A stretch of 5,798 nucleotides of DNA from a bacterium (lineage in GTDB: Bacteria > RBG-13-66-14), in NCBI GenBank assembly GCA_035528375.1, contig DATKYS010000014.1, positions 1 through 5,798 on the forward strand, written 5' to 3'. The position numbers were made by a program, and so were the translations under genes. Position 1 is the stretch's first letter, and every line of letters begins with the position of its first letter. Positions 1 through 5,798 of the stretch are shown one piece after another. The notes below the pieces were generated by a model. That model made no database searches. It was not told where the DNA came from and was given only the letters and a program-made list of their open reading frames with translations.

Positions 1-945
1 AAGGTCATGTGATTTCGTAACTCCGCCAGCTATCAGACTTTCAGCGGTTTCCCATAATGCACTGAGAACTGCTACAGAAGTTGCAGTTGGTAATAATCGG
101 ATTATTTTTCCAGCTGTAAAGAAAATGGGCCAGTAGTTGACCTTAAGGATAGCATTCCATTCATCAACCAATGGGGTTGGTAAAAAGGCTCCGTTTTCTC
201 GAAATTCACTTGGCGATTTGATAGTGCGCCGGGTTTGAGTACGTGTATCGGTTATTTGGGTTTCAGTTTCAGCGAGTGACGCTTGAAAGATTAGGGCATT
301 GGTAATAACAGACATTACCATCCGGCGAGCCTGTCCGGATTCATCGTCATTCTGATCGAGCACCTTACATATATCACTGGCTAGCTTCGAGCCATGCGGA
401 TGTGTGTCACTGAATAAACCAGCGGCAAACACAATACCACGCTCAAGGGTATCGGCTAGTGGTTCAACCCTCCAAGATGGTACTCTTGAGCGGTGTAAGA
501 GTAACGCTAACTCAACGATCCCACTTGAAAGCCAGCCTGAACTTGGGACACGTACAATATCTCCTAGAAATTCTTGCGTAAATACCGAATACTCGAAAAT
601 TGCAGTCCGGATAGCATTCCTAAGTGCTTCCCCATCAAATGAACGTAGTTCTTCAGGATATACTAGAGCAATGACAGTATCTACAATTCTCCCGTTTTCT
701 GCGAATCTCCGCCCCAGCCTTGAACACGCTTCTGTTTCAGCCTGTAAGTAATTGTTGACCTCTGCCTCGATAACTACCGGGCTTCCACCTGGTTCAGAAA
801 GGAATATGTCTAGTCGTCCACCACCCTCGAAAACGTCTCCTATTCGTTCCCCCTTTACATCCCAATCATGACCAAGACCTCGAAGAACTTCCGCCATCGC
901 CGTATTGATCGTCTGTTCGTGTGTCTCATGCCTTCTTATTGCCAT
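1..945 (-). CDS. N-terminal 315 aa of a probable restriction/DNA methyltransferase-type protein (open at left edge)
   Basis: Reading the minus strand from the ATG at 945 gives 315 uninterrupted codons to the window edge with no stop, so the gene is truncated by the window. The start is supported by AGGAG seven bases upstream and by the lack of any upstream in-frame start. Residues 41-62 read as a glycine turn, RLDI (Asp46), a short loop, then a strand ending in Glu60-Ala-Glu62. This is a PD-(D/E)xK-like arrangement with Glu in place of Lys, as in BamHI (Asp94, Glu111, Glu113). RLG follows at 77-79. Residues 80-300 are mixed alpha/beta and mostly unassigned. The last residues, GGVTKSHDL, resemble the segment that precedes the catalytic core in large N6-adenine methylase/restriction fusions. 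That is recall of the family, not an alignment. There are no membrane segments. Base composition is far more AT-rich than in the neighbouring genes, suggesting transfer. The ORF is firm; the function is moderately supported. It could instead be a nuclease-like domain in another defence protein. Confidence 0.6.
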   Translation of the reverse strand, partial: MAIRRHETHEQTINTAMAEVLRGLGHDWDVKGERIGDVFEGGGRLDIFLSEPGGSPVVIEAEVNNYLQAETEACSRLGRRFAENGRIVDTVIALVYPEELRSFDGEALRNAIRTAIFEYSVFTQEFLGDIVRVPSSGWLSSGIVELALLLHRSRVPSWRVEPLADTLERGIVFAAGLFSDTHPHGSKLASDICKVLDQNDDESGQARRMVMSVITNALIFQASLAETETQITDTRTQTRRTIKSPSEFRENGAFLPTPLVDEWNAILKVNYWPIFFTAGKIIRLLPTATSVAVLSALWETAESLIAGGVTKSHDL

Positions 946-992: not shown

Positions 993-3035
993 CTACAGCC
1001 GCAATAACAGGATGTGGTTCGTGTTCTGGTCTATCAGGTACAGCCGGTCCACATGGGAGCCGGCGACGGACCAGGGCCGGAGCGACTTCACCCCGGGCTC
1101 CCGCCGCCGCGTGGGGGCCAGAGGCTTGAAGCGGTCCTTCTCCCAGTGCACCGCGCCGAGCTCTATCTGACCCAGCGGGGTCAGGTCGGAATCGAAGAAC
1201 TGGAGGCGGTTGTTGTCCCCGCCCTCGGCCACCACAAGGAAGCCGCCCTGGGTCACGACGAGGTCGGTGGGTGAGCGGAACTGGCCCAGCGCGGCCCCGT
1301 AACCGGCCAGCTCGGCCTGGAAGCGCCCGTCGCCGTCGTAGACCATGATCCGGTTGGCCCCGGTGTCCAGGACGTAGATGCGGCCGTCGGGCCCCACGGA
1401 GAGCTTCTCGGGCCGGGGCAGGATGCCCCCCGGCGCCGGACGCAGGCCCACCTCGAGCTCGACCCTCCCCGATACGCCGAAGGCCTGGATCCGCCGGTTC
1501 CCCGTGTCGGCCACGATGAGCCGCGCGCCGTCGTGGTCCAGGTCCAGGGGGAGGGTGAGCCGTCCGCGGGCCTGGCCCATGCCCCCGAAGGTCTGCAACA
1601 GGCCGCCGTCGTCGTCGAGCTTCTTCACCTCGTGGTTCTGGCTGTCGGCGACCCACAGGTAGCCCAGGTCGTCCACGGCCACCGCCGCGGGGTTGAGGAA
1701 GGTCCTGCCCCCGCCCTTGCCCAGGGTCTTCAGGCGGAGTCCCTGGAGCCTCGCGGTGCCGCGGGGTTCGGCCCGGTGACCGGAGATCTCTGCCAGCGCC
1801 CGCTCTATGGGGTAGCGGTGCACCAGGTTCCGGTAGTACTCCACGATGAAGAGCTCGCCGGCGTACTCGTGGATGCTGAAGGGGGCCAGGGTGGAGAGCC
1901 CCAGTCGGGGTTCGGCGGAGAGGTCCATCAGCGTCCGGGGCGCGGTGTCGGTCAACAGGCCCTTGAGGCGGTTGAGGACCACGGTCTCCGGCCTGGCGGG
2001 CTCGGGCTTGCGGGGCTCGGGCCGGGGTCGGCGGCGCTCCGTCCGGACGCGGGGCTTTTCGAGGTCCACGACGGGGAGCTCCTCCGCCTTCTTCTCCGGC
2101 TCGGTTGGGGCCTCCCTGCGGCCCCCGACCGGCTCGGCGACGCCGATGATGCAGACCCGGTTCCGCCCGGCCTGCTTGGCGGCGTACAGGGCCTTGTCGG
2201 CGCCGTCAATCAGCCCCTCGACGCCGTCGCAGTGCTCGGGGTAGGCCGAGACGCCGAAGCTGGTGGTGATTTTGAAGCTCAGTTTCTCCTCGGGCACGGC
2301 GATGGGTGAGGCGGCCAGCTTGGCCCGGGTGGCCTCGGCGCGCAGGGCAATCTCCTCCGCCGAAATGCCCGGGACCACAACCATCAGCTCCTCGCCGCCG
2401 TAGCGCGCCGCGAACCCGCCGGTGGACATCCCCCGCACCAGCAACCCCGCCAGCCCCAGCGCCCGGTCGCCGATGGCGTGGCCGTAGGTGTCGTTGACCC
2501 GCTTGAAGTGGTCCAGGTCGGCCAGGGCCACGGCCAGGGATTTCTTCGCCTTCGCCGCCTCGTCGAAGAGGGTGTGGACCTGCTCGTCGAAGAAGGCGCG
2601 GTTGTAGAGGCGGGTCACCGGATCGAGCTGGGCCAGCTCGTCGCGCAACAGTTGCACCAGGAGCTCGGCGAAATCCTCGGCGGCCACCAGGTCGCTCTCG
2701 CCCAGAATCCCGCGCTCCAGCTCGAAGATGTCCAGGCGGCCGTAGAGCTGTCCCCGGCTGTAAAGCGGGAGCGAGAAGAGCGGCTCTTCCTTCTTCTTCT
2801 CCTCGGGGAACTCGGGGAGGGTGATGGAGTAGAAGGAGGCGTCCTCCCGGTCGTCGCCGACGGCGGCGGGGGGGAGCGGGCACTGGTCGGGGTAGAGCAC
2901 CACCCGGGGGTGGCGGCAGGCGCAGATTCTCACCAACCGCGAGAGGACCTCGCGGAACAGGGCGACCAGGTTCCGGTTGGTCCGGGCCAGGCGCAGGACC
3001 TCGCGGAAGGCGCCGGCGACGCTGGACTCGCTCAT
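993..3035 (-). CDS. GAF-like / GGDEF diguanylate cyclase fused to a six-bladed NHL propeller
   Basis: The complete protein has 680 residues and ends in TAG at 995-993. Residues 1-135 form a GAF-like alpha/beta sensor region. Residues 137-298 are a GGDEF domain: DPVTRLYNR at 138-146, metal-binding Asp173 in LADLDHFK, NDTYGHAIGD at 181-190, the active-site loop GGEEL at 213-217, and ADKALYAAKQAGRNRV at 279-294. GGEEL is a catalytically competent variant, so synthesis of cyclic di-GMP from two GTP is expected. The product-binding RxxD inhibitory site is absent; STGG stands there (205-208). Residues 305-350 are a Pro/Arg/Glu-rich linker. Residues ~383-680 carry six NHL-type blades, for example at ~383-418, 445-484, 490-528, 538-578, 584-626 and 648-680, with cores such as LWVADSQNHEV, LIVADTGNRRI and IYVLDTGANRI. 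There is no signal peptide or membrane helix, so the protein is probably cytosolic. The ATG at 3035 is preferred over the in-frame TTG at 3101 because that TTG forms part of the -35 box. The Shine-Dalgarno is weak (GGGG only). Confidence 0.9.
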   Translation of the reverse strand: MSESSVAGAFREVLRLARTNRNLVALFREVLSRLVRICACRHPRVVLYPDQCPLPPAAVGDDREDASFYSITLPEFPEEKKKEEPLFSLPLYSRGQLYGRLDIFELERGILGESDLVAAEDFAELLVQLLRDELAQLDPVTRLYNRAFFDEQVHTLFDEAAKAKKSLAVALADLDHFKRVNDTYGHAIGDRALGLAGLLVRGMSTGGFAARYGGEELMVVVPGISAEEIALRAEATRAKLAASPIAVPEEKLSFKITTSFGVSAYPEHCDGVEGLIDGADKALYAAKQAGRNRVCIIGVAEPVGGRREAPTEPEKKAEELPVVDLEKPRVRTERRRPRPEPRKPEPARPETVVLNRLKGLLTDTAPRTLMDLSAEPRLGLSTLAPFSIHEYAGELFIVEYYRNLVHRYPIERALAEISGHRAEPRGTARLQGLRLKTLGKGGGRTFLNPAAVAVDDLGYLWVADSQNHEVKKLDDDGGLLQTFGGMGQARGRLTLPLDLDHDGARLIVADTGNRRIQAFGVSGRVELEVGLRPAPGGILPRPEKLSVGPDGRIYVLDTGANRIMVYDGDGRFQAELAGYGAALGQFRSPTDLVVTQGGFLVVAEGGDNNRLQFFDSDLTPLGQIELGAVHWEKDRFKPLAPTRRREPGVKSLRPWSVAGSHVDRLYLIDQNTNHILLLRL

Positions 3036-3072
3036 GACGACCCCGGGGAGGGGGGTATACTCAGACGGTGTA

Positions 3073-3101
3073 ATGATAGCCCGAAGACGCGACCGTGGCA
3101 A
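3073..3101 (-). promoter_or_regulatory. Sigma70-type promoter of the GGDEF-NHL gene
   Basis: On the minus strand TTGCCA (3101-3096) is followed by a 17-base spacer and TATCAT (3078-3073). Both hexamers are one or two mismatches from consensus at ideal spacing. Transcription would begin near 3066, giving a leader of about 31 bases before the ATG at 3035. The first base of the -35 box is also the first base of an in-frame TTG codon, which rules out that TTG as the translation start if this promoter is used. Confidence 0.7.
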
Positions 3102-3163
3102 GCGTATTACCGGGCGGCGACCGGGACCGGCCTTTTGGGGTGGCGCCCGCGCCGGTCATCAGC

Positions 3164-3169
3164 TAAAAT
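3164..3169 (+). promoter_or_regulatory. Possible -10 element for the DUF2062-glycosyltransferase operon
   Basis: TAAAAT lies in an otherwise very GC-rich stretch 59 bases before the GTG start at 3228. It matches the -10 consensus at five of six positions. No good -35 hexamer sits 16-18 bases upstream (TGGCGC at 17), so an activator, an alternative sigma factor or chance is possible. If used, transcription would start at about 3176, inside the hairpin described separately. Confidence 0.3.
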
Positions 3170-3206
3170 CACCCGGGTCCCCGGACCCGGAATCACCCGG
3201 GTCCCC
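3167..3206 (+). repeat. Two 16-bp direct repeats at 24-bp period
   Basis: AATCACCCGGGTCCCC occurs at 3167-3182 and again, identically, at 3191-3206. The period is 24 bases, a multiple of three, and in phase with the downstream DUF2062 frame, where it would read ITRVP twice. It lies between the possible -10 element and the start codon. It could be an operator pair, a small tandem duplication, or part of an N-terminal extension. Confidence 0.7.
3173..3190. other. GC-rich inverted repeat in the divergent promoter region
   Basis: CCGGGTCC (3173-3180) pairs with GGACCCGG (3183-3190) around a two-base centre. As RNA it would form a seven-pair stem with a four-base loop; as DNA it is an almost perfect dyad. 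No U-run follows on either strand, so it is not an intrinsic terminator. It overlaps the first direct repeat and could bind a dimeric regulator or structure the 5' leader of the plus-strand transcript. Confidence 0.5.
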
Positions 3207-3227
3207 TCCCCACCCGGACGGCCCCCC

Positions 3228-3740
3228 GTGCCCGTGAAGTGGCTGAAAAGACTCTGGCACCGTTTCGCCGCCTGGCTCGTCGGGCACAAGGACCCCAAGG
3301 AGGTGGCGCTGGGGCTGGCCCTCGGGGCCGCGGTCTCCCTCACGCCCCTCATCGGCCTCCACGCCGTGCTGGCCGTGCTTCTGGCCTCGATCACCCCCTC
3401 GAACCGCCTGGCCGCCATCCTGGGCACCCAGCTCGGCAACCCCTTCACCCTCCCCTTCTTCTTCTGGCTGGAGTACAAGATCGGGAGCTGGATAACGGGG
3501 GTGCAGGTGACGACCTCGCTCTCCTTCTCCCAGATCGGGCTGGAGGACGCGGCGGACCGCATGGTGCAGCTCTTCGGCGAGGCGGCCTGGCCCTACTCGG
3601 TGGGGATGGTCATCCTGGCCGTCCTCGTGGGCCTGGCGGTCTACGGCCTGACGGTGCTGGTGGCCCGGATTCTGCATTTGAGGATGCGTCGCCGCCTGGT
3701 GGACACCGGGCTGGATAAAGATTCCCCCCCTCCCGCTTGA
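3228..3740 (+). CDS. DUF2062 family small membrane protein
   Basis: The protein has 170 residues from the GTG at 3228, or 168 from the GTG at 3234, ending in TGA. A basic N-terminus (KWLKRLWHRF) precedes the hallmark DUF2062 stretch at residues 24-91. This includes ALGLALG (27-33), TPLIGLH (39-45), a NR pair at 59-60, GTQLGNPFTLP (66-76) and a closing Gly-rich turn. A second hydrophobic helix pair lies at about 35-56 and 124-148, followed by an Arg-rich tail that probably faces the cytoplasm. The family has no established biochemical role; it is an inner-membrane protein often found with glycosylation genes. It starts 24 bases before the glycosyltransferase on the same strand, so the two are likely co-transcribed. 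No Shine-Dalgarno precedes either GTG. The frame stays open far upstream, and a TTG at 3135 would add 31 low-complexity residues; I consider that unlikely. Confidence 0.85.
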   Translation: MPVKWLKRLWHRFAAWLVGHKDPKEVALGLALGAAVSLTPLIGLHAVLAVLLASITPSNRLAAILGTQLGNPFTLPFFFWLEYKIGSWITGVQVTTSLSFSQIGLEDAADRMVQLFGEAAWPYSVGMVILAVLVGLAVYGLTVLVARILHLRMRRRLVDTGLDKDSPPPA

Positions 3741-3764
3741 CACGCCTCCCACGGTACCGGTGAG

Positions 3765-5798
3765 ATGACGAAGAAAAAAACCGCCCCCGTAAAGAGCGAG
3801 CCGACGGTCCACCCCTTCTGGCGGAGCCGTTGGCTCGTGTTGATTCTCGTCGTCGCGGCGCTGGCGCCCCGGCTCATCATCCTCACCCAGCTCACCGAGA
3901 GCCCGGCCTTCACCCACCCGGTGATGGACTCCGCAGTTTACGACGACTGGGCCTGGACGCTGGCGGACTCGTGGACGAACCCGGATTACGCCGGCCCGCA
4001 CGGTGAGGCGGCGAAGTACCTCGAGGGCTCGTTCTTCATGGGGCCGCTCTACGCCTACTTCCTCACCGGGATTTACCTCCTCTTCGGCCACGTGCTGCTC
4101 CTGGCGCACCTGGCCGGGATCCTGGTCGGCGTGGGGACGGTGCTGTTGACGGCCGCCATAGGCCGGCGGTTGTACGGGCCGAAGGTCGGATTCGTCGCCG
4201 GGCTGGCCGCGGCGCTCTACCCCGCCCTTTTCCTCTACGACTCCGCGATGCTGATGAGCGTCCTTTTGGTCTTCTTCGCCACCCTGGCGCTCTACCTCGT
4301 CATCCGGGGGCAGGAGGGGGACCGGTGGTACCACTGGCTGGGGGCCGGGGCGTGCCTGGGGCTCTACGCCCTGGGGCGGGCCAACATCCTGCTATTCGCG
4401 CCGGTGCTGGCGGTGTGGGCCTTCCTCGCCCTGTGGAAAAAAGTCGAGCCCGGGGCGAGGGGCTTTTGGAACCGGCTGGGTGAGCGCCTCAAGGAAAATT
4501 GGAAGCCCGGGCTGGGGCGAGTGATTTTCCTGACCGCCGGGGTGCTGGCCTTCGTGCTTCCGGCCACCATCCACAACGCCGCGGCCGACGGCGAGTTCGT
4601 CCCCGTCACCGCCAACGGCGGCATCAACCTCTACATCGGCAACAACGAGCTGGCCACCGGGGAGTACGTCAACCCGCCGATGGTGGACGTGCGGAGCGAC
4701 CCGGGCGGGAGGCGGTACGTGAGCGGCCTCGAGGGCCGCCCCGTGACCTACGGCGAGGCGTCGGACTGGTGGTCCGCCAGGGCCGGGGAGTACATCGCCG
4801 AAAACCCCGGCCGCTGGCTGGGCCTCGTCCTCACCAAGGCGCTCCTCTTCGTCCACCGCCACGAGATAATGCAGGTGGCCAACATCCACATCATCCTGGG
4901 CTGGGAGTCGCCTTCCGTTTTCTTCGGCGTCCTGGCGGTCCTGGGGCTTCTGGCCTTCGTCTGGGACCGCGAGCGGCGAAGGCGCATGGGGGCCCTCTGG
5001 CTCTTCGTCCTGGTCTATTCCCTCACCATCGTCGCCTTCTTCGTCACCGCCCGGTACAGGCTGCCGGTGGTCCCGCTGCTGCTGCCGGCCGCCGTGTGGG
5101 CCGCGGCCGAGCTGGTCCGCCGCCTGAAGGAGGGCGGAAAGACGCGCGTCAGGGCCCTGGCCCTGGTCGTCCCGGCGCTCCTGGTGACCAACCTGCCGCT
5201 GGGCCTGTTCGGCGTGGAGCTGGTGGGCAACGACGCCGTGCTGCACAACAACCTGGGCACCATCTACTACGACCAGGGGGTGTACACGCTCGCCGTGGAC
5301 GAGTACGAGCGGGCGATCCGGGCCAACCCGAAGATTTACCTCACCTACACCAACCTGGGGCTGGCGCACCTGAAGCTGGGGATGCGCTCGGAGGCGCAGC
5401 GGAATTTCGAGCAGGCGCTCTCGGTTTACCCCAACGACAACTGGGCGCTGTTGAACCTCGGCGCGCTGTACCTGGAGCGGATGGAGGTTCTGGGCGACGA
5501 GTCGGCCCTGGACGAGGCGGAGACCTACCTGCGGCGGTCGCTCGCGCTCAATCCCGGCCACCCCGAGACGTACCAGGATTTGATGAAGGTGTACCTGGCG
5601 CGGGGGGATTACGCCGGTGCGGCGGCCGTCGTCGAGCGGGGCCTGCGGGTGGCGCCCGACGACCCCTACCTCATGTTCTGGTTGGGCGGGCTCTACGCCG
5701 AACGGTTGAACCGGCCCGCCGAGGCGCTGGACCTCTTCCGCCGCTTCTACGAGACCCGGCCCTACACCCCGGACCACGAGGTCGCCCTGGAGTGGATT
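3765..5798 (+). CDS. GT39/PMT_2-type membrane glycosyltransferase with C-terminal TPR repeats (open at right edge)
   Basis: From the ATG at 3765 the frame runs 678 codons to the window edge without a stop. A short Lys-rich N-terminus leads to a first membrane helix (23-40). An outward loop follows with the acidic motif MDSAVYDDW (54-62), where the catalytic Asp of the PMT/ArnT-like GT-C fold is expected. About ten more hydrophobic helices follow, up to residue ~484. The region NGGINLYIGNN (284-294) and the ARYRLPVVP motif (429-437) are typical of bacterial PMT_2 proteins. Such enzymes transfer sugars from polyprenyl-phosphate donors on the outer face of the inner membrane. The soluble C-terminal part holds TPR units at about 491-522, 523-556, 557-597 (with an insertion), 598-631 and 632-666, and continues past the edge. 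It lies downstream of the DUF2062 gene with a 24-base gap. GGTGAG abuts the ATG, a poor ribosome binding site, so translational coupling is plausible. The acceptor and sugar are unknown. Confidence 0.85.
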   Translation, partial: MTKKKTAPVKSEPTVHPFWRSRWLVLILVVAALAPRLIILTQLTESPAFTHPVMDSAVYDDWAWTLADSWTNPDYAGPHGEAAKYLEGSFFMGPLYAYFLTGIYLLFGHVLLLAHLAGILVGVGTVLLTAAIGRRLYGPKVGFVAGLAAALYPALFLYDSAMLMSVLLVFFATLALYLVIRGQEGDRWYHWLGAGACLGLYALGRANILLFAPVLAVWAFLALWKKVEPGARGFWNRLGERLKENWKPGLGRVIFLTAGVLAFVLPATIHNAAADGEFVPVTANGGINLYIGNNELATGEYVNPPMVDVRSDPGGRRYVSGLEGRPVTYGEASDWWSARAGEYIAENPGRWLGLVLTKALLFVHRHEIMQVANIHIILGWESPSVFFGVLAVLGLLAFVWDRERRRRMGALWLFVLVYSLTIVAFFVTARYRLPVVPLLLPAAVWAAAELVRRLKEGGKTRVRALALVVPALLVTNLPLGLFGVELVGNDAVLHNNLGTIYYDQGVYTLAVDEYERAIRANPKIYLTYTNLGLAHLKLGMRSEAQRNFEQALSVYPNDNWALLNLGALYLERMEVLGDESALDEAETYLRRSLALNPGHPETYQDLMKVYLARGDYAGAAAVVERGLRVAPDDPYLMFWLGGLYAERLNRPAEALDLFRRFYETRPYTPDHEVALEWI

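What the first reader, a model, noticed from the sequence alone, without database searches (positions are those of the whole stretch)
993..3035. Soluble diguanylate cyclase fused to a six-bladed NHL propeller
A GGDEF domain with intact catalytic motifs is followed by a proline/arginine-rich linker and six NHL-like blades, with no membrane helix or signal peptide. GGDEF domains are usually joined to sensory domains on the N-terminal side; propellers joined to them are generally periplasmic and N-terminal. A cytosolic C-terminal NHL propeller suggests that protein or RNA binding by the propeller positions or controls cyclic di-GMP synthesis.
Basis: partly seen in the sequence, partly recalled or inferred. 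Interest (0 to 1): 0.6.

Follow-up and report, generated by a model that had tools for sequence, protein, structure and literature searches.

The report
GAF-like/GGDEF cyclase with C-terminal NHL propeller
An uncultured bacterial phylum (Coatesbacteria) carries a soluble enzyme predicted to make the signal molecule cyclic di-GMP, fused at its tail to a six-bladed propeller; the gene was found in all 14 genomes examined (complete in ten), appears to be the only standard enzyme of its kind in several of them, and was not seen in 372 genomes from elsewhere.

Summary
Window 993-3035 (minus strand) encodes a 680-residue protein with a complete GGDEF domain (residues 135-293), a low-complexity linker and a predicted six-bladed NHL propeller (367-680), without signal peptide or membrane helix. 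The genome belongs to Candidatus Coatesbacteria. All 14 held genomes of the phylum have the gene (complete in ten, cut or broken in four), with the same domain order in four families. No full-length match appeared in 372 genomes outside the phylum. Catalytic residues are invariant; the RxxD inhibitory site is absent throughout. In four genomes (one rated 100% complete) it is the only canonical GGDEF protein, while HD-GYP, EAL or PilZ proteins are present, so it is probably the main c-di-GMP synthase there. The proline/arginine-rich linker and the positive propeller face are limited to the window's family, so RNA binding as the conserved role is not supported; protein docking is likelier. Activity and partner are inferred, not shown. 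New variant of a known kind.

The parts
993..3035 (-). whole gene, 680 aa plus stop, ATG start at 3035 (same start position in the relatives L009, L041, L042)
   Evidence: Pfam GAF_2 E 0.012 and GAF E 0.082, both below cut-off; model pTM 0.82, and nearly all of the 50 best Foldseek matches are GAF-type domains although none reaches E 0.001
2145..2645 (-). residues 131-297: GGDEF (diguanylate cyclase) domain
   Evidence: PF00990 E 1.2e-39; Z 24.7-24.8 to DgcB and PleD
2385..2405 (-). RYGGEEL active-site motif, residues 211-217; the RxxD inhibitory site upstream is absent
1986..2144 (-). residues 298-350: proline/arginine-rich linker, predicted disordered; 53-71 aa in the window's family, 22-31 aa in the other families
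996..1985 (-). residues 351-680: six-bladed NHL propeller; blades at 387-438, 449-484, 496-530, 542-577, 589-625 and 654-679, the last closed by strand 367-371
   Evidence: PF01436 E 1.9e-20, 4 repeats; model; Z 31.2 to Thin NHL, 279 residues, rmsd 3.0
1194..1235 (-). most conserved propeller stretch, VVAEGGDNNRLQFF (blade 5, residues 601-614)
   Evidence: V601, E604, G606, D607, R610, Q612, F613, F614 invariant in 11 sequences

Best explanation
A soluble, cytosolic diguanylate cyclase of the GAF-GGDEF type, specific to Candidatus Coatesbacteria as far as surveyed. The GAF-like domain most likely brings two cyclase domains together and may sense a signal; the GGDEF dimer makes c-di-GMP from two GTP without I-site product inhibition; the C-terminal six-bladed NHL propeller most likely docks the enzyme on a partner protein through a flexible linker, so that c-di-GMP is made at a place or time set by that partner. 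Shown here by sequence and model: domain order, intact active site, missing I-site, propeller fold, conservation through the phylum. Inferred: catalytic activity, dimerisation, propeller docking.
For: Complete copies in ten of 14 phylum genomes and cut or broken ones in the other four; no full-length match in 372 outside genomes. Active-site residues D173, K178, N181, D182, H186, D190 invariant in the 10 sequences that cover them, R211, GGEE, K287 and R291 invariant in all 11. D190 (PleD D344 equivalent) argues for ordinary GTP specificity (own knowledge of GGDEF enzymes). In G007, G009, G006 and G013 the only other GGDEF-like hit is a response regulator with a GGDDF motif, H in place of the RxGG arginine and a match to only part of the profile, while HD-GYP is in 14/14, EAL in 13/14 and PilZ in 11/14 genomes: a c-di-GMP pathway with this protein as its only canonical synthase there. 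The propeller is the best conserved domain within the genus (85% identity, dN/dS 0.19, against GGDEF 79%, 0.41), so it is under constraint. No transmembrane or signal segment in the window protein (maximum 19-residue hydropathy 1.23).
Against: No activity data. The fifth residue of the GGDEF motif is L, M or I in families f1, f2 and f4. Between families the GGDEF (37-42% identity) is better conserved than the propeller (25-33%), so the partner or binding surface may have changed. Nothing identifies the partner: the gene stands alone with different neighbours in different families.
Confidence: 0.6

Rival explanations
1. The propeller is a small-ligand or metabolite sensor that controls the cyclase allosterically, as other ligand-binding domains do for GGDEF proteins.
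For: GGDEF domains are usually under control of a sensor domain (own knowledge); the most conserved part of the propeller is the B-C loop/C-strand part of blades 3 and 5.
Against: The linker is 22-71 residues long, poorly conserved and in the window protein predicted disordered, which does not suit a rigid allosteric relay; most invariant propeller residues coincide with the general NHL repeat consensus (own reading of the repeat).
Confidence: 0.2
2. The propeller binds RNA, as the TRIM71, LIN41 and Brat NHL domains do, and ties c-di-GMP synthesis to a transcript.
For: Closest solved structures are TRIM71, LIN41 and Thin NHL domains; top-face loops of the window protein carry net charge +13 and those of its family +4 to +13.
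Against: In the other families of the phylum the same loops carry -5 to 0 and the whole propeller -10 to -14, so it is not a conserved property. Similarity of NHL fold does not show function: designed Pizza propellers match almost as well.
Confidence: 0.07
3. The GGDEF is a degenerate domain that binds but does not make nucleotide, and the protein is a receptor or scaffold.
For: GGEEL, GGEEM or GGEEI in place of GGEEF in several members.
Against: All catalytic and metal positions tested are invariant; the I-site, through which degenerate GGDEF receptors usually bind c-di-GMP (own knowledge), is missing; in four genomes no other canonical GGDEF was found.
Confidence: 0.1

Closest known systems
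GAF-GGDEF diguanylate cyclases, for example the GAF-GAF-GGDEF protein in the same genome (L093)
   Same: N-terminal GAF-type module followed directly by a canonical GGDEF
   Different: in those the GGDEF lies near the end of the protein; here a six-bladed propeller of about 310 residues follows
PleD, WspR and DgcB (solved GGDEF cyclases)
   Same: GGDEF fold and active-site residues
   Different: no receiver domain, no RxxD inhibitory site, propeller at the C-terminus
NHL propellers of TRIM71/LIN41, Thin and Brat
   Same: six-bladed NHL fold (Z 26-31)
   Different: 19-26% identity, eukaryotic E3 ligase or RNA-binding context; charge pattern not conserved here
Mycobacterium tuberculosis PknD (kinase, membrane segment, C-terminal NHL propeller; PMC1262709; 1rwi)
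   Same: bacterial signalling enzyme with a C-terminal six-bladed NHL propeller, Z 25.1
   Different: PknD is a membrane receptor with an extracellular propeller; this protein is soluble and its enzyme is a cyclase

Membership tests
GGDEF diguanylate cyclase | complete GGDEF domain over the curated cut-off | tested here: met
   136 bits against cut-off 23.8 over the whole profile; TIGR00254 142 bits against 37.4
GGDEF diguanylate cyclase | catalytic and metal-binding residues (D, K, N, D, RxGG[DE]E) | tested here: met
   invariant in every family sequence that covers them
GGDEF diguanylate cyclase | makes c-di-GMP from GTP | not testable with these tools
   needs enzyme assay
I-site-inhibited cyclases (PleD, WspR type) | RxxD inhibitory site upstream of GGDEF | tested here: not met
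   S204/G207 at the two positions; no member has both R and D
NHL repeat propeller | NHL repeats over the curated cut-off | tested here: met
   PF01436 72.3 bits against cut-off 20, 4 repeats
NHL repeat propeller | six blades, closed ring | tested here: met
   six blades in the model, closing strand 367-371; Z up to 31.2 to six-bladed NHL structures
GAF domain | match over the curated GAF cut-off | tested here: not met
   GAF_2 16.3 bits against 28.6; GAF 13.9 against 22.4
GAF domain | GAF fold | tested here: inconclusive
   nearly all of the best 50 Foldseek matches are GAF-type domains with probability 0.84-1.00, but none with E below 0.001; called GAF-like only
RNA-binding NHL domains (TRIM71, Brat) | conserved positively charged top surface | tested here: not met
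   +4 to +13 in family f1, -5 to 0 in the other families; estimated from loop charges in the alignment, not from a surface

The most novel reading that the evidence does not exclude
In Coatesbacteria the basic c-di-GMP synthase is permanently wired to one place or partner by a C-terminal NHL propeller, so that a whole phylum runs its c-di-GMP signalling largely through a propeller-addressed hub enzyme instead of a set of membrane sensors.
Probability: 0.3. Interest if true: 0.68.

Novelty: new variant of a known kind. Interest (0 to 1): 0.46.

Why it matters
c-di-GMP signalling is mostly studied in bacteria with many cyclases, which makes specificity hard to dissect. Here is a phylum with very few GGDEF proteins, in which the one present throughout carries its own six-bladed docking or sensing module on the unusual side. 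If active, it offers a simple natural system for testing whether local binding of a cyclase, and not bulk c-di-GMP, sets the response, and it names a c-di-GMP enzyme for a phylum with no cultured member that I know of.

Tried and rejected
Papers on GGDEF with NHL or propeller: the few hits hold the words apart; none describes the fusion in the abstracts or passages read. Plasmid collection: no record covers 80% of the protein. c-di-GMP-I riboswitch: no match, but the control genomes gave none either, so uninformative. Conserved operon: none seen; neighbours differ between families. G012: the reading frame runs into a 100-base run of N after the GGDEF, and no propeller was found in the 14 kb fetched, so inconclusive. 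In G002 the frame is broken around an unknown stretch, in G001 the gene lies in two contigs and the second piece ends early, in G005 it starts at a contig end. Independent GGDEF-NHL fusions with a different propeller were not searched exhaustively: the survey scored only the best candidates of each genome with a profile of this family, so a divergent fusion could have been missed. Domain packing: model pTM is 0.51 and no error matrix was available, so no contact between propeller and cyclase is claimed. The dN/dS values are simple Nei-Gojobori estimates in GC-rich DNA and are rough.

Full report
What is there. Window 993-3035 on the minus strand is an open reading frame of 680 residues starting with ATG at 3035. 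Pfam finds a complete GGDEF domain at 135-293 (E 1.2e-39) and NHL repeats (E 1.9e-20, four repeats over threshold). An AlphaFold2 model from an alignment of 11 family sequences (mean pLDDT 79, pTM 0.51) shows six blades at 387-438, 449-484, 496-530, 542-577, 589-625 and 654-679, the last one closed by strand 367-371, and a linker at 304-347 with pLDDT under 50. VIA-align gives Z 31.2 to the Thin NHL domain (279 residues, rmsd 3.0), 29-31 to TRIM71, LIN41, TRIM2 and TRIM3, 25.1 to PknD, and 24.7-24.8 for the GGDEF part to DgcB and PleD. There is no signal peptide or membrane helix by hydropathy in the window protein (maximum 1.23 over 19 residues).

Residues 1-130 form a separate domain. Pfam gives only sub-threshold GAF matches (E 0.012 and 0.082), but the domain folds well alone (pTM 0.82) and nearly all of its best Foldseek matches are GAF-type domains, though none under E 0.001. 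I call it GAF-like. The cyclase therefore has a usual N-terminal module, and the propeller is an additional C-terminal one.

Where it comes from. Relatives at 80 and 95% identity lie in records named Candidatus Coatesbacteria. All 14 held genomes of the phylum have the gene. It is complete in ten, the window's own included: G000, G003, G004, G006, G007, G008, G009, G010, G011 and G013. In G001 it lies in two contigs and the second piece ends early, in G002 the frame is broken around an unknown stretch, in G005 it starts at a contig end, and in G012 the frame runs into a run of N before the propeller, with no propeller found nearby. Four families (f1-f4) show the complete architecture. The same profile gave no full-length match in 372 genomes outside the phylum; the best outside match has 217 bits and covers only the end of the GAF-like domain and the GGDEF. 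A further 39 and 5 genomes of two other phyla, partly overlapping with these, gave none. In loci outside the phylum the GGDEF sits at the C-terminal end: at most 29 residues follow the domain in 33 of 35.

Is it an active cyclase? Equivalents of the PleD active-site residues are invariant in every family sequence that covers them; the fifth residue of the motif is L, M, I or F. The RxxD inhibitory site is absent in all members. D190, the position changed in cGAMP-making relatives (own knowledge), is D throughout. In G007 (100% complete), G009 (91%), G006 (96%) and G013 (78%) the only other GGDEF-like hit is a response regulator with a GGDDF motif, H for the RxGG arginine and a match to part of the profile only; its activity cannot be excluded. 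The other genomes have one or more further GGDEF proteins, for example GAF-GAF-GGDEF in the window's own genome (L093). HD-GYP is found in 14/14 genomes, EAL in 13/14 and PilZ in 11/14; MshEN in 7/14, family f1 only. A c-di-GMP pathway is thus present, and in several genomes this protein is its only canonical synthase. That is the best indirect evidence for activity.

What the propeller does. Within the genus it is the most conserved domain (85% identity against 79% for GGDEF; dN/dS 0.19 against 0.41, rough estimates). Across families GGDEF is better conserved (37-42%) than the propeller (25-33%). The stretch V-x-x-E-x-G-D-x-x-R-x-Q-F-F in blade 5 is invariant at eight positions. Net charge of the top loops is +4 to +13 in family f1 but -5 to 0 in the others, and the long proline/arginine-rich linker is found only in f1. 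RNA binding is therefore unlikely to be the shared function. Docking on a protein partner through a flexible linker fits best; a ligand-sensing propeller is the main rival. No partner is suggested by gene neighbourhood.

Novelty. Both domains are well known. PknD shows that a bacterial signalling enzyme can carry a C-terminal NHL propeller (PMC1262709). I found no paper that describes a GGDEF-NHL fusion, within the limits of the library searched. The case is a new variant of a known kind, of interest mainly because it is phylum-wide and may be the main c-di-GMP synthase in some members.

Noticed in passing
1-992: DNA of about 46% G+C against about 69% in the rest; similarity to the relatives L009 and L041 stops exactly at the stop codon of the cyclase gene (993/994). 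It looks like acquired DNA or an assembly join.
   Followed up: partly
1-945 (minus strand): Protein of at least 315 aa, cut by the contig end, without a Pfam, NCBIfam or PADLOC match; one 36% match in a Nitrosospira plasmid (NZ_AP024517.1), unannotated.
   Followed up: partly
3228-3740 (plus strand): DUF2062 membrane protein, next to the cyclase and divergent from it; a similar protein lies next to it in G001 (L042).
   Followed up: no
3765-5798 (plus strand): Membrane glycosyltransferase-like protein (PMT_2) with a C-terminal TPR array, open at the contig end.
   Followed up: no
L097 (G011) 2730-4499: Another GGDEF protein with a large C-terminal extension: GGDEF followed by an ATPase-like region, in an open frame of 1158-1224 aa in family f3.
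   Followed up: no
L088-L092: Response regulator with a GGDDF-type domain (H for the RxGG arginine), found once in each genome of the phylum examined.
   Followed up: partly
L048 10681-12644, L049 255-1229: Other NHL-repeat proteins, apparently secreted, near or next to the cyclase in family f3; these genomes hold 30 or more matches.
   Followed up: no
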